From positions 3,844,001 to 3,908,000 of the forward strand of contig OX595985.1 of assembly GCA_951394045.1 (NCBI GenBank): a stretch of DNA of 64,000 nt, in the 5' to 3' direction. Below, piece after piece: positions 13,896-59,136 of the stretch. A program made the position numbers and the translations under genes. Each line of letters opens with the position of its first letter. Within the stretch, counting starts at the first letter, position 1. The notes under the pieces are model-generated. The model worked only from the letters and a program-made list of their open reading frames with translations, had not been told where the DNA came from and made no database searches. The stretch comes from Nitzschia sp. DOCU1. Lineage: Eukaryota; Bacillariophyta; Bacillariophyceae; Bacillariales; Bacillariaceae.

Positions 13896-13907
13896 AGTGT
13901 TAACACT
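13896..13907 (-). promoter_or_regulatory. Gypsy-1 palindrome at the primer-binding position
   Basis: AGTGTTAACACT, a perfect 12-bp palindrome, one nucleotide inside the 5' LTR (LTR begins at 13909). No TGG-type complement to a tRNA 3' end is present. A small hairpin CACGAC-AATC-GTCGTG follows. The same layout is seen in gypsy-2 (19981-19992) and the TRIM (59063-59074). Confidence 0.75.
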
Positions 13908-13908
13908 A

Positions 13909-14440
13909 TGCACTACGTCGTTTGTAGGATCGAAAAGGTTGTGAAAATTATGGCTAGGTTAAAAACTAGATGTATTTCTCATGCAAGTTGTCTCGTAGGC
14001 TCTCGTAGTTCTAGTAGAGTCGAGACCTTTGACATGCATCGACAACAATCCGAACAGGAGGTTGATGCATCTTGTAGTAGACTAGCTACGACGTTGTACT
14101 AGGGTTCTTTGGACGTCGTCAGCTACTCTGGAATAAAGTATAGCTACCTCGATGTCATCGAGGTGCCAGATCTTAGGTGGCATTGACACTAGGATCTCAT
14201 CGGCATTCGACTAGCTGGAGTCATGCGCGATGCCTGCGTCATGCAACGTCACGCCGACGGTGACGTCAATAGGTTATGGGCCTTGTCCGACGATGTCCGA
14301 GACCGGCCTAGCGTTCGCGTCCGCATGCAACGCTTTCGTCATGCTACGTCATCACACATGATGTCACACATGACTAAATAGACTAATATTATTGGACTAC
14401 AATCATTCGAAGGAGTCGACGTGTAAAGCAGTGTACTGCA
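13909..14440 (-). repeat. Gypsy-1 5' LTR
   Basis: 532 bp, apparently identical to the 3' LTR. Followed on the right by AATT, the repeat of the target site at 8711-8714. Confidence 0.95.
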
Positions 14441-14860
14441 AATTTCTTCGTCCTTCTGGGCCAACTGTGTTGTGAGGTTGGTGGTGTTGTCAACTAGGGC
14501 TGCGAATGCTTGGCGGTCGGAGGCTGTGGCCGTGGCCAGGTTGGCCAAGGCTTCTACTGTCGCGTTTTCCTGGTCGGCAATGGCCACGTTGATGAAACCT
14601 GCGCGGCCGGTAGTGGTTTGTTGGAGGCGGAGGGAGCGTTGGGCGTCCAAGAAGTGGAGCTTGAAGTTATCCCATGTTTGTTCGGCGGTGGGTTTGGCAA
14701 GCCACCTTTTGCAATCATCAAAGTACAGACCGGTTGCCCAAACGGAACTGTAGGCAGAGGTCAGGATGTGGCTGTCGCTGATTGGGGCATTGCCGTCGGC
14801 TGCAAATTCTACGCAGGTTTCGACACTGTCAATAAGGGTCTCGAAGGGGCTGTTGCCGTC
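14441..14860 (-). CDS. Copia-1 gag, middle part between the two gypsy insertions
   Basis: Minus-strand segment in the gag frame: NSPFETLIDSVETC and AKPTAEQTWDNFKLHFLDAQ, followed by a coiled-coil-like stretch with ATVEALANLATATASDRQAF and TTQLAQKDEEI. This is the C-terminal capsid/linker region of a stramenopile copia Gag. The phase fits both neighbours: across CCGTC it joins the N-terminal part at 20617, across AATT the zinc-cluster part at 8710. No stop codon inside. Confidence 0.85.
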
Positions 14861-15478
14861 TGCCCTATCCCGGGGGTGACGAAATAAAAGTAGAAGACAA
14901 TTGTAATTGTGAGACCTATGTTACATCTATTTGCATTCATTCCAACAACAAGATTGACGAGACGAAAGATTTTCGTCTTTCAAATATTTGCGACCGATCG
15001 TTCATTTTGTGAACGTCTTTCCCCGCGCGTAAATAACGCGCATATATTCTATTCATTCGGATATGTCGATTCCTCGTATCGTCGCCTTCTAACTAGGCGT
15101 CCCTAGTCCTGGCTAGCTACGACTCCTCGTCGCCCATGGTCTGAATTATTTCCTTGCTCTAAATACATCTCCTCTATTAGGCGATGCATATTTACTACTT
15201 AGATTGTAGGCATGCCGTTGGCAAGGGACTCTATGGGTTAGTCGAATGTTACTATGCAATATACTACAGAGCGCTTCCATGTGTAACGCTACGACTGCTT
15301 TGATCGTTGCGTCGGTGCGCCGTCAGCGACGACGTCACCGTTTGTTCGTGTCCGTGTCCGTTAGCCGTCTGTACGTTGTCCGTCAGGCGGACGACTCCGT
15401 TCGTCTACGACTACTAAGACTACCAGCGTGTAGGACTAATATGACTAAACTATTTACGCGTCTCTGTGGGGTATGGCA
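14861..15478 (-). repeat. Gypsy-2 3' LTR
   Basis: 618 bp, TGCCATACCCC...GATAGGGCA in element orientation. Preceded (element upstream, 15479-15489) by the purine-rich AGGGAAGCGGG. Confidence 0.95.
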
Positions 15479-15503
15479 CCCGCTTCCCTATGGAACAGTT
15501 CGG

Positions 15504-17171
15504 TTACTTTGTCCAGTACGGTGTAATCCGTCTGATGTTAACTCGTTGCTGTACGGGGCCATTTTGAATGGTCACGGTTCCATTGTCATGTACATTCACT
15601 ACATTGTAGGGTCCCGTACGCGGACTCCGTACTTTCGGTAATTTTCCGGGTGTAGTGAGCAGCACGCGATCGCCAACATTGTACTGATGCTGGATTCTCT
15701 TTGAGTTTTCTCGTTTATTGGAAGCATCGATGATCTTCTGCTTGCGTAGCCTAATACGCGCCCAGTCTGCCACAAACTGTACTGGGAGAAACATATCCCT
15801 GCCGAATACTAACTGCGCTGGGGATGCCTGTAGGGTCGTGTGGTGCGTACTCCTAATCGCGAAGGCGGCGGCAGTGAGGAACTCATCCCATGGGTTCGTT
15901 TCGTCGAGTTCTCGTTCCTCTAATTCGAAGTTACGTAACGAGTTTCCTAATACTTGGTGTACACGCTCTATTACGCCGTTACTTTGGGGATTGTATTCTG
16001 TTGAGGGCTTCCTCTCCAGGCCATAGTTCTTACATAAGTCGTTGAAGTAGCGTTTGAATGTTGACCCATTATCTATGCCCACTTGTTGAGGTCTCGGGTA
16101 CCTCGCCAACCAATAAGCATCGAATACCTTCTGGCACTCGTAGCTATCAGGTTTAGGCAGTGGTGCTATTTCAAACCAACCCGTGACTGGGTCGATCATG
16201 GTCATCGCTAAGAGCTCGCGTACTCCTTTCGGAGTTCGCACGGTGTATGGTCCTACCATGTCTACGTTCACGCGCTTCCATGGTATTGTCTCCGCTTCTT
16301 TCGGCGGCAGATGGCCATATTCTTTCCGTTGCTTCTTCGTCAACTGACATATCTTGCACATGCGACAGTGTTGCTCGACTGTCTCTCGCAATCCTTGCCA
16401 ATCGAATACGTGGCGTATTGTCGCTTCCATTCGGGTCATGCCTGGGTGTTGTAGCAAGTCGTGGTAGCTTTCGACTATCCTAGCTTGTAGTGCAGCCGGT
16501 ACTACTACTTTACCGTACTTAGCTATAACATCTACACCTTCTAGTTTGATCTTGGTGTATTTAGAGGGAGCTCGTCTGGCTTTTCGCATTAGATCGAGGT
16601 CTTTGTTTTGGTAGTATGCTACTACCTTTGGACTCAGTGCGAATCCTTCTTCTGCCGCGATATCTTCCGCGGTCACGAGGTCGGCATAGGAGATCTCGTA
16701 GTCGTCGTCATCTCTTGGGTGATGTGACATACAATACGACATTTGTTTCCCAATGGGAACCTCCTCTGTCGACTCATCATCTGGGTCACTATTCGGGTGT
16801 CGCGACAGTGTGTCCGCGACTACATTGTCTTCGCCTTTGACATGCACGAACGTAGCACCGTACTCTTCCAACAGAAGACGCCAGTGAACCACTCGGGAGC
16901 TCGGCATCTTGTTGTACAGAATATTTAGGTGGTCCGTGTGTACTACCAGCTTTTGACCAAGGAGAATATTCCTAAATTCCTTAAGCGTCTCGACTATACT
17001 TAGCAGCTCCTGTTCGCCTGTCGTATAATTCTTTTGGGCGGAGTTCAACTTCCGACTATAGAACGCCAATGGCTTTCCGTCTTGCATAATTACGGCGCCC
17101 AATTGATAATCGCTAGCATCCGTATATATGTGGAATTCTTTGTTGAAGTCGGGGAAGTTCAACAGCGTCTC
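15504..17171 (-). CDS. Gypsy-2 Pol, RNase H and integrase part
   Basis: Downstream of the nonsense codon at 17172, same frame as the RT part. RNase H: IYTDASDYQLGAVIM, TTGEQELLSIVETLKEF, VHTDHLNIL, VVADTLSRHP. Integrase: HHCC finger with YHDLLQHPGMTR and CRMCKICQLTKK, first Asp in NVDMVGPYTV, second in GIDNGSTFK, Glu in SNGVIERVHQ. C-terminal GPYNVVNVHDNGTVTI (GPY/F-type module). Ends with TAA 25 nt before the 3' LTR. No internal ATG explains separate translation; it is the second half of a broken polyprotein. Confidence 0.93.
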   Translation of the reverse strand, partial: ETLLNFPDFNKEFHIYTDASDYQLGAVIMQDGKPLAFYSRKLNSAQKNYTTGEQELLSIVETLKEFRNILLGQKLVVHTDHLNILYNKMPSSRVVHWRLLLEEYGATFVHVKGEDNVVADTLSRHPNSDPDDESTEEVPIGKQMSYCMSHHPRDDDDYEISYADLVTAEDIAAEEGFALSPKVVAYYQNKDLDLMRKARRAPSKYTKIKLEGVDVIAKYGKVVVPAALQARIVESYHDLLQHPGMTRMEATIRHVFDWQGLRETVEQHCRMCKICQLTKKQRKEYGHLPPKEAETIPWKRVNVDMVGPYTVRTPKGVRELLAMTMIDPVTGWFEIAPLPKPDSYECQKVFDAYWLARYPRPQQVGIDNGSTFKRYFNDLCKNYGLERKPSTEYNPQSNGVIERVHQVLGNSLRNFELEERELDETNPWDEFLTAAAFAIRSTHHTTLQASPAQLVFGRDMFLPVQFVADWARIRLRKQKIIDASNKRENSKRIQHQYNVGDRVLLTTPGKLPKVRSPRTGPYNVVNVHDNGTVTIQNGPVQQRVNIRRITPYWTK

Positions 17172-58370: not shown

Positions 58371-58591
58371 TCAAAGGGTGGGCGCGGCGGGTTAATCAAT
58401 CGTAAACTATTTGTCTGCTAGTGTCGGCTTGGGATCAAGCTTTCCTTCCCAGTTCTTGCTATCGATAGCAAGGAGAAAAAGTTTATGGTCGTGGTCGTTC
58501 AACACGTAGCGTAGTCTTCCCCTAGCTCTTCCTCCCTTCTTCCTTTTAGTAGGGCGGTAGGAGGGGTAGTTCGAAATTCGATCCGGGTTCC
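58371..58591. other. Spacer between repeat and TRIM
   Basis: 221 bp of sequence between the outer repeat copy and the TRIM target site; no gene. Contains GCTATCGATAGC, a 12-bp palindrome, near 58460. Confidence 0.5.
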
Positions 58592-58652
58592 TGCCCTATG
58601 CGCAAAAGGGGTTGTAACCTTAGTACTTTTCTAATACTTAAGGTATATGGCA
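58592..58652 (-). repeat. TRIM 3' LTR (61 bp)
   Basis: TGCCCTATGCGC...ATATGGCA on the plus strand, apparently identical to the other copy. Confidence 0.88.
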
Positions 58653-59062
58653 TGCTCCCCCAAGATCAGCGACATTACGCTTGTTGCGTGTCTTTTTACC
58701 GCCTTTTTGTGCTCTTGTGGCATGGCAGTGCTGATCGCGCACCTTCGCGGGGCTTCGTGCATTGCGCTCCGAAGTGATTTTTTTCCCTGCGCAGTGGTGT
58801 CACGCGTTGCTTGGGTTTCCTCGTCACTCCCCCATATTTTTGGGTGGGTTGGGTGGGATGCCCCCTTTTTTTTCAGATTTTTCTTCCCCTACTTTCTTTT
58901 GCATTTGTGGGATGGTTCTCTATCCCCCCTTTTCGTGAGGGCTCCATTTTTTTGCTTTTTGCTTATGGATTCGAACCTCAGACCTCGTCTTTCTGCGAGT
59001 CTGTTTGTACCCCTCCTCTACTGAATTTTTCTACTTTTGTGTAGAATCCTACGTAGAGCGGC

Positions 59063-59074
59063 AGTGAATTCACT
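59063..59074 (-). promoter_or_regulatory. TRIM palindrome at the primer-binding position
   Basis: AGTGAATTCACT, one nucleotide from the LTR at 59076; same position and same AGT...ACT frame as in gypsy-1 and gypsy-2 but with a different core (GAATTC). Confidence 0.75.
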
Positions 59075-59075
59075 A

Positions 59076-59136
59076 TGCCCTATGCGCAAAAGGGGTTGTA
59101 ACCTTAGTACTTTTCTAATACTTAAGGTATATGGCA
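59076..59136 (-). repeat. TRIM 5' LTR (61 bp)
   Basis: Matches 58592-58652 over its full length; followed by GTTCC. Confidence 0.88.

What the first reader, a model, noticed from the sequence alone, without database searches (positions are those of the whole stretch)
13896..59136. A perfect 12-bp palindrome AGT-N6-ACT replaces the tRNA primer-binding site in three different LTR elements
Seen: one nucleotide inside the 5' LTR, gypsy-1 has AGTGTTAACACT (13896-13907, copy 45264-45275), gypsy-2 has AGTTTTAAAACT (19981-19992) and the TRIM has AGTGAATTCACT (59063-59074). Position and outer AGT/ACT are the same; the cores differ (GTTAAC, TTTAAA, GAATTC), so selection seems to act on self-complementarity, not on a fixed primer match. 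A given perfect 12-bp palindrome is expected about once in 4096 sites. None starts with TGG. Known: retroviral RNAs dimerise through short palindromes near the PBS; most LTR elements use a tRNA complement there. Inference: either a dimerisation signal fused to the start of minus-strand synthesis or an unknown self- or dimer-primed mechanism. I know of no described element with this layout.
Basis: partly seen in the sequence, partly recalled or inferred. Interest (0 to 1): 0.87.

Follow-up and report, generated by a model that had tools for sequence, protein, structure and literature searches.

The report
Palindromes replace tRNA primer site
Several families of Gypsy retrotransposons in this genome, and two related elements from other sources, lack a tRNA docking site at the usual place and have a short perfect palindrome there instead, which suggests that their RNA starts its own copying by pairing with a second copy of itself.

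Summary
In gypsy-1, gypsy-2 and the TRIM, the 5' LTR ends in CA, then one nucleotide, then an exact 12-bp palindrome. AGT/ACT is not general: other Gypsy families here carry TCTGAATTCAGA, TTTGATATCAAA, TCTGATCAGA, CTGTAATTACAG and CTTTGATCAAAG, starting 0-1 nt after the LTR. Of 24 stretches fetched for 5' ends, 18 show it, one copy has that end deleted, five gave no LTR end. Two relatives on foreign MAG contigs have it too, one with a new sequence. Across nine sequences all 51 pairs are complementary. Eleven sites match 24 nuclear tRNAs over only 6-8 nt, as shuffles do; two Copia families match initiator tRNA-Met over 14 and 16 nt. No Tf1-type partner lies in the LTRs. Most likely the palindrome is the primer site and the primer is a second copy of the same RNA (inferred, untested). 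Prior art: fungal GalEa Copia elements have a palindromic LTR-end site of unknown mechanism (PMC5445492). A new variant with strong comparative support.

The parts
13896..13907 (-). gypsy-1 palindrome AGTGTTAACACT, inferred primer site; spacer T at 13908
13909..14440 (-). gypsy-1 5' LTR (TGCAGTAC..GTAGTGCA)
   Evidence: 100% identical to 8715-9246; 4-bp target duplication AATT read
8715..9246 (-). gypsy-1 3' LTR
12682..13881 (-). gypsy-1 first frame, 399 aa, gag by position only
   Evidence: no Pfam match
9274..12645 (-). gypsy-1 pol, 1123 aa: protease, RT, RNase H, integrase
   Evidence: integrase core below Pfam's cut-off, zinc-binding part above
45264..45275 (-). second gypsy-1 palindrome, in a segmental duplicate of the first
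19981..19992 (-). gypsy-2 palindrome AGTTTTAAAACT, inferred primer site; spacer C at 19993
19994..20611 (-). gypsy-2 5' LTR (TGCCATAC..ATAGGGCA)
   Evidence: target duplication CCGTC read
14861..15478 (-). gypsy-2 3' LTR
   Evidence: 99.7% identical to the 5' LTR
15504..18587 (-). gypsy-2 pol in two frames (RT; RNase H and integrase)
18832..19968 (-). gypsy-2 first frame, 378 aa, gag by position only
59063..59074 (-). TRIM palindrome AGTGAATTCACT, inferred primer site; spacer T (minus strand) at 59075
59076..59136 (-). TRIM 5' LTR, 61 bp, same termini as gypsy-2 (TGCCATA..ATAGGGCA)
   Evidence: target duplication GTTCC read
58592..58652 (-). TRIM 3' LTR, preceded on the minus strand by a purine run GGGGGAGCA

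Best explanation
The palindrome is the primer-binding site, and the primer is the same palindrome of a second genomic RNA of the same family. (1) Two genomic RNAs pair through the 10-12 nt palindromes just downstream of U5. (2) One strand is cut at the 3' edge of this RNA duplex, as the RNase H of Tf1 is reported to cut its 11-bp RNA duplex. (3) The freed 3'-OH lies at the U5/palindrome junction of the partner RNA and primes minus-strand strong-stop DNA. (4) The primer's palindrome is copied into plus-strand strong-stop DNA and pairs with the minus-strand copy, so the site is inherited. A primer made from the element's own site can fit only if the site equals its own reverse complement. Shown: position, palindromy, paired changes between families and sources, no tRNA or Tf1-type partner in what was tested. 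Inferred: dimer, cut and priming.
For: Place: palindrome edge 0-1 nt from the LTR end in 8 of 8 families of this genome whose LTR end was checked against a second LTR, 18 of 24 fetched stretches overall. Symmetry without a fixed sequence: 36 of 36 and 15 of 15 pairs. L131 and gypsy-2 share the flanks ATAGGGCAC and CCCG and differ in one base pair of the palindrome, changed on both sides, at 58% RT identity. Lengths change symmetrically (12 against 10 bp) while the 5' edge stays. Central 4 nt self-complementary in 9 of 9, needed for a dimer and not for a hairpin. TRIM and gypsy-2 share LTR termini but not the palindrome. Two of two foreign loci that reach the LTR end. No tRNA run above 8 nt for 11 sites, while the Copia control finds its tRNA over 14 and 16 nt. 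No LTR run above 6 nt in 10 elements.
Against: No cDNA, RNA or protein data. The tRNA set is incomplete (24 nuclear genes; Leu, Val, Pro, Asp, Glu, His, Tyr, Cys, Trp absent); other small RNAs were not tested. Five of 24 stretches gave no palindrome and no LTR end. Some sequence is constant (T at position 3, A/T centre, one sequence through the X clade), so self-complementarity is not the only constraint. In predicted monomer folds the palindrome is mostly a 4-bp hairpin or paired with its surroundings. One-sided changes exist in a few copies. Families are related, so their sites are not fully independent.
Confidence: 0.55

Rival explanations
1. The palindrome is a dimer initiation site only. 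Priming is by another, unrecognised RNA that anneals at or beside it.
For: Retroviral dimer sites are short palindromes near the PBS (general knowledge; named in PMC5445492, passages). The tRNA set tested is incomplete.
Against: The palindrome starts where a primer must end to give this LTR end, in 8 of 8 checked families. No match above 8 nt to 24 tRNAs in the first 20 nt of 11 sites. The sequence after the palindrome differs between families.
Confidence: 0.22
2. Snap-back self-priming: the RNA is cut after the palindrome, its 3' end folds back as a 4-bp hairpin and copies its own U5 and R.
For: Needs only self-complementarity; predicted monomer folds show this 4-bp hairpin with a 4-nt loop in several families.
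Against: The loop need not be self-complementary, yet the central 4 nt are in 9 of 9 sequences; a 4-bp stem with 4-nt loop is weak.
Confidence: 0.1
3. A host RNA outside the tested set (another tRNA, a tRNA fragment, another small RNA) is the primer and the palindrome is incidental or reflects its stem.
For: Copia families of the same genome use an internal part of initiator tRNA-Met, so internal tRNA primers exist here.
Against: Nine different palindromes would need nine palindromic host RNAs; symmetric change between L131 and gypsy-2; best tRNA runs at shuffle level.
Confidence: 0.08
4. A DNA-level signal, such as a site for a homodimeric protein, which happens to lie at the LTR edge.
For: Homodimeric DNA-binding proteins often have palindromic sites (general knowledge).
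Against: A protein site would keep its sequence; the nine sequences share a T at position 3, an A/T centre and symmetry only. It gives no reason for the fixed distance to the LTR end or for the missing PBS.
Confidence: 0.05

Closest known systems
Fungal GalEa Copia elements with the Conserved Hairpin Site (Donnart et al. 2017, PMC5445492; one section and passages read)
   Same: No tRNA PBS; a palindrome at the 5' LTR end (with the last A of the LTR a 10-mer, ACTGATCAGT or ACTAATTAGT in 85% of families), with changes mainly at two positions that pair with each other by my reading; authors propose that it acts as PBS and find no model that fits.
   Different: Copia, not Gypsy; the palindrome takes in the last LTR base; one near-constant sequence; a second, inverse-complementary segment 12-41 bp downstream, of which no trace was found here.
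Tf1/sushi self-primed Gypsy elements
   Same: Gypsy superfamily, primer from the element's own RNA, short RNA duplex (11 nt in Tf1; PMC7175516 passage).
   Different: Tf1 uses the first 11 nt of the same RNA against a separate PBS; here no LTR stretch complements the site and the site complements itself.
Copia elements of the same genome
   Same: LTR ends in CA followed by the priming site.
   Different: They complement the D-arm of initiator tRNA-Met over 14 and 16 nt and are not palindromic.
Retroviral dimer initiation site
   Same: Short palindrome near the 5' end of the genomic RNA that can pair two RNAs.
   Different: It lies in a hairpin loop and exists in addition to a tRNA PBS (PMC5445492 discussion passage).
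Bivalve TRIM elements (PMC6934838, passages)
   Same: No clear tRNA PBS, inverted repeats or palindromes inside the element.
   Different: Hairpin-type repeats as in GalEa; no perfect palindrome at a fixed distance of 0-1 nt from the LTR is described in the passages seen.

Membership tests
Ty3/Gypsy LTR retrotransposons | Order protease, RT, RNase H, integrase; TG..CA LTRs; 4-5 bp target duplication | tested here: met
   gypsy-1: protease 112-192, RT 348-507, RNase H 570-691, integrase zinc part 788-844, core 860-966 (below cut-off); LTRs and duplications
tRNA-primed LTR elements | PBS complementary to a tRNA (3' end or internal part) | tested here: not met
   11 sites, best runs 6-8 nt to 24 nuclear tRNAs, shuffle level; the tRNA set is incomplete. 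Copia control: 14 and 16 nt
Tf1/sushi self-primed elements | PBS complementary to the 5' end of the same RNA (start of R in the LTR) | tested here: not met
   Longest LTR run complementary to the first 13 nt after the LTR is 4-6 nt in 10 of 10 elements (G1b, L131 and L132 with incomplete LTRs)
GalEa-type Conserved Hairpin Site | Palindrome at the 5' LTR end in place of a PBS | tested here: met
   offset differs by one or two nt
GalEa-type Conserved Hairpin Site | Second inverse-complementary segment downstream | tested here: not met
   Best ungapped match in the next 60 nt 5-7 of 10 or 12, at shuffle level in 11 of 11; longest runs 3-6 nt
GalEa-type Conserved Hairpin Site | Copia superfamily (integrase before RT) | tested here: not met
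   Integrase after RT in gypsy-1 pol
Homotypic dimer self-priming (proposed) | Site equals its own reverse complement, edge at the LTR end, changes paired | tested here: met
Homotypic dimer self-priming (proposed) | cDNA starts on the element's own RNA at the palindrome edge | not testable with these tools
   Needs cDNA end mapping

The most novel reading that the evidence does not exclude
A third way to start reverse transcription in LTR elements, beside tRNA priming and Tf1-type self-priming: two identical genomic RNAs prime each other through a palindromic primer site. It is the standard mode of a large Gypsy assemblage in this alga-like host and in relatives from other samples, was reached independently by fungal GalEa Copia elements, and makes the packaging of two RNAs a chemical need of initiation.
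Probability: 0.45. Interest if true: 0.9.

Novelty: new variant of a known kind. Interest (0 to 1): 0.77.

Why it matters
How reverse transcription starts is a defining step of LTR elements and retroviruses. A primer site that pairs with itself would join dimerisation and initiation in one act, free the element from host tRNAs, offer an explanation for the unexplained fungal GalEa site, and give annotators a new signal for elements now listed as lacking a PBS. The gypsy-1 pol has 1,251 relatives at E 1e-20 or better among 7,993 scored candidates, so the mode could be common; at DNA level only two relatives from other sources could be checked.

Tried and rejected
Rejected: a conserved AGT/ACT motif as the signal (other families lack it); a Tf1-type LTR partner (one search used LTR slices one to two bases off for the TRIM and V, repeats it with the right ends); a GalEa-like downstream partner. 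An apparent exception, family G1b (L117), proved to be a copy with the 5' LTR end and part of the site deleted: two other copies have CA|CTTTGATCAAAG, and the 3' LTR beside L117 has the same GTGCA end.

Led nowhere: pattern searches for AGT-type palindromes with other cores gave 125 sites with no repeated new palindrome next to a GCA end; three scans of viral contigs gave no relative; L126 was fetched on the wrong side of a minus-strand element and is not counted; L107-L109 and L123-L125 missed the Copia site. Papers: ten searches. The six exact phrases, such as palindromic PBS, returned no paper. The library lacks most subscription journals. Lin and Levin 1997 was not held. A review says that Cryptococcus Tcn2-5 may have novel priming (PMC7175516, passage); the original was not seen.
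Full report
The claim checked. The elements lie on the minus strand. Two-LTR comparison and target duplications (AATT, CCGTC, GTTCC, read) fix the LTR ends. In each case the 5' LTR ends in CA, one nucleotide follows, then the palindrome: gypsy-1 CA-T-AGTGTTAACACT, gypsy-2 CA-C-AGTTTTAAAACT, TRIM CA-T-AGTGAATTCACT. 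The second gypsy-1 copy lies in an 11.4-kb duplication, 99.6% identical, and is no independent case. Two plus-strand gypsy-2-like remnants do not keep the site (about 46019, LTR end and start of the palindrome missing; 50886, LTR joined to other sequence). Palindromes of 12 bp occur in the window at about twice the chance rate (37 against 15.6) and at 164 of 266,054 positions in fetched loci over 900 bases, PBS copies included. The fixed place is what is unlikely.

Other families of the same genome. An RT search of the 52-Mb genome scored 150 of 410 candidates; a second search with the RT of a more distant family scored 150 of 359. I fetched 24 stretches meant to hold 5' ends of Gypsy elements, spread over families (7, 11, 6; a 25th, L126, was on the wrong side and is left out). 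In 18 of 24 a palindrome of 10-12 bp follows a CA end after 0-1 nt: TCTGAATTCAGA (X: L091-L094), TTTGATATCAAA (Y: L095, L096, L138), TCTGATCAGA (Z and W: L097, L110, L111, L112, L140), CTGTAATTACAG (V: L115), AGTGTTAACACT (gypsy-1 relatives L118, L119, L139) and CTTTGATCAAAG (G1b: L135, L137). One (L117) is a G1b copy with that end deleted. In five (L113, L114, L116, L120, L136) neither an LTR end nor such a palindrome was found; the RT frames of the first four are under 850 aa, that of L136 has 1110. The LTR end was checked against a second LTR for one element each of X, Y, Z and V, for G1b between copies and for the three window elements, which makes 8 of 8 checked families with the site; for the rest it is read by homology. 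In V and G1b the palindrome is flush with CA; read with a one-nt spacer it is a 10-bp palindrome like Z/W whose outer C and G also pair.

Paired changes. Over the six 12-bp sequences (gypsy-1, gypsy-2, TRIM, X, Y, L132) 36 of 36 pairs are complementary, with 2, 4, 1, 3, 2 and 2 pair types per position; column shuffles average 20.3 and 0 of 20,000 reach 36. Over the three 10-bp sequences (Z/W, V, G1b) 15 of 15 pair. The families are related, so the shuffle count is not a probability. The cleanest case is L131 against gypsy-2: the flanks ATAGGGCAC and CCCG are identical, RT is 58% identical, and one base pair of the palindrome differs, changed on both sides. X against Z/W and Y against G1b differ in the length of the centre, again symmetrically. 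RT identities between gypsy-1, gypsy-2, X, Y and Z are 40-72%. Some sequence is constant: position 3 is T and the centre AT or TA in all nine, and X keeps one sequence although its RTs differ clearly.

Copies within families. GGGCA-N-AGT-N6-ACT has 144 sites; of 100 listed, 74 have the gypsy-2 core, 10 the TRIM core, and 16 are other single sites. Gypsy-2 with flanks and up to 3 mismatches has 110 sites; of 100 listed, 56 are perfect and 44 have one mismatch: 5 in the 12 palindrome positions (3 of them the same A to G, which keeps a G-U pair in RNA), 3 in the spacer, 36 in the six 3' flanking positions, none in the six LTR positions. TGCA-N-AGT-N6-ACTCC has 130 sites; of 100 listed, 94 have the perfect gypsy-1 palindrome, 1 a one-sided change, 5 are unrelated. 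The X pattern has 27 sites: 25 perfect, 2 single others. Many copies look young, so this shows presence more than constraint, and patterns with fixed outer bases miss copies changed there.

Other sources. A scan of prokaryote genome contigs with an alignment of 19 gypsy-1 pol relatives found four loci in MAGs, most likely contaminating eukaryotic DNA (inference). Two reach the 5' LTR end and both have the layout: L131 CA-C-AGTGTTAACACT and L132 CA-C-TATCAATTGATA. L133 starts inside the first coding frame and L134 is a fragment. L131 and L132 have overlapping contig ends, so each LTR is seen once; their LTR end is read from the CA and the place before the coding frames. Three scans of viral contigs found no relative.

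Primers tested. The first 20 nt of 11 sites match 24 nuclear tRNAs over 6-8 nt, as shuffled sites do (means 6.3-6.9; an earlier set with 23 tRNAs gave 5-8). The test can find a primer: two Copia families share CA-CGCTTCCTCTGCGC, which complements 14 and 16 nt of initiator tRNA-Met at C16:752837-752908, and a 17-base pattern of that tRNA occurs once in the genome. Leu, Val, Pro, Asp, Glu, His, Tyr, Cys and Trp tRNAs are not in the set. The LTRs hold no run above 6 nt complementary to the first 13 nt after the LTR in 10 of 10 elements, against 11 in Tf1 (PMC7175516, passage).

Mechanism. The U5 end of an LTR is set by where minus-strand synthesis starts, that is by the 3' end of the annealed primer (general knowledge). 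Here that point coincides with the 5' edge of the palindrome, and this edge stays put while the length varies. A primer that pairs with the whole palindrome has the palindrome's own sequence, so the element's own RNA, cut at the far edge, is the one primer sure to exist for every family. Pairing of two RNAs also explains symmetry through the centre, which a snap-back hairpin would not need, and why the TRIM, which shares LTR termini with gypsy-2 and is probably moved by it (inference), has its own palindrome. The cut has a precedent in Tf1, where RNase H cleaves an RNA duplex between bases 11 and 12 (passage). Cut and priming are inference. I give the whole chain 0.55 and the weaker statement that the palindrome is the primer site about 0.85. 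Against it: in predicted monomer folds the palindrome is mostly a 4-bp hairpin or paired with its surroundings, which a dimer would have to open.

Known and new. Donnart et al. 2017 (PMC5445492; one section and passages read) describe fungal GalEa Copia elements without a PBS, with a 10-bp palindrome at the LTR end and a second downstream segment; they suggest that it acts as PBS and find no model that fits. The Gypsy sites here differ in superfamily, offset, diversity of sequence and lack of the second segment. The bivalve TRIM paper cites the same puzzle (PMC6934838, passages). My ten searches showed no description for Gypsy elements or algae in their listings, within an open-access library only. 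Hence a new variant of a known kind, with a testable mechanism that may also fit the fungal case.

Noticed in passing
window 2984-14440 and 34376-45809: Segmental duplication of about 11.4 kb, 99.6% identical, which contains both gypsy-1 copies.
   Followed up: partly
window 26226-34179: Tandem array with a unit of 1,481 bp, nearly identical copies; parts of the unit also at 1-3283.
   Followed up: no
window 45810-54890: Nested remains of gypsy-2-like elements on the plus strand, one LTR joined directly to gag-like sequence.
   Followed up: partly
L127, L128: Two Copia families share a primer site that complements the D-arm of initiator tRNA-Met, so an internal part of this tRNA seems to be their primer.
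   Followed up: partly
nine palindromes listed: Position 3 is T and the central dinucleotide AT or TA in all nine, a constraint beyond symmetry; no explanation.
   Followed up: no
L097, L110, L111, L112, L140 and fungal GalEa (PMC5445492): The Z/W palindrome TCTGATCAGA and the GalEa palindrome ACTGATCAGT share the core CTGATCAG; chance or a common cause is open.
   Followed up: no
window 4522-6546, 59350-60417, 60573-62432: Long open frames of 674, 355 and 619 aa on the minus strand without a Pfam match.
   Followed up: no
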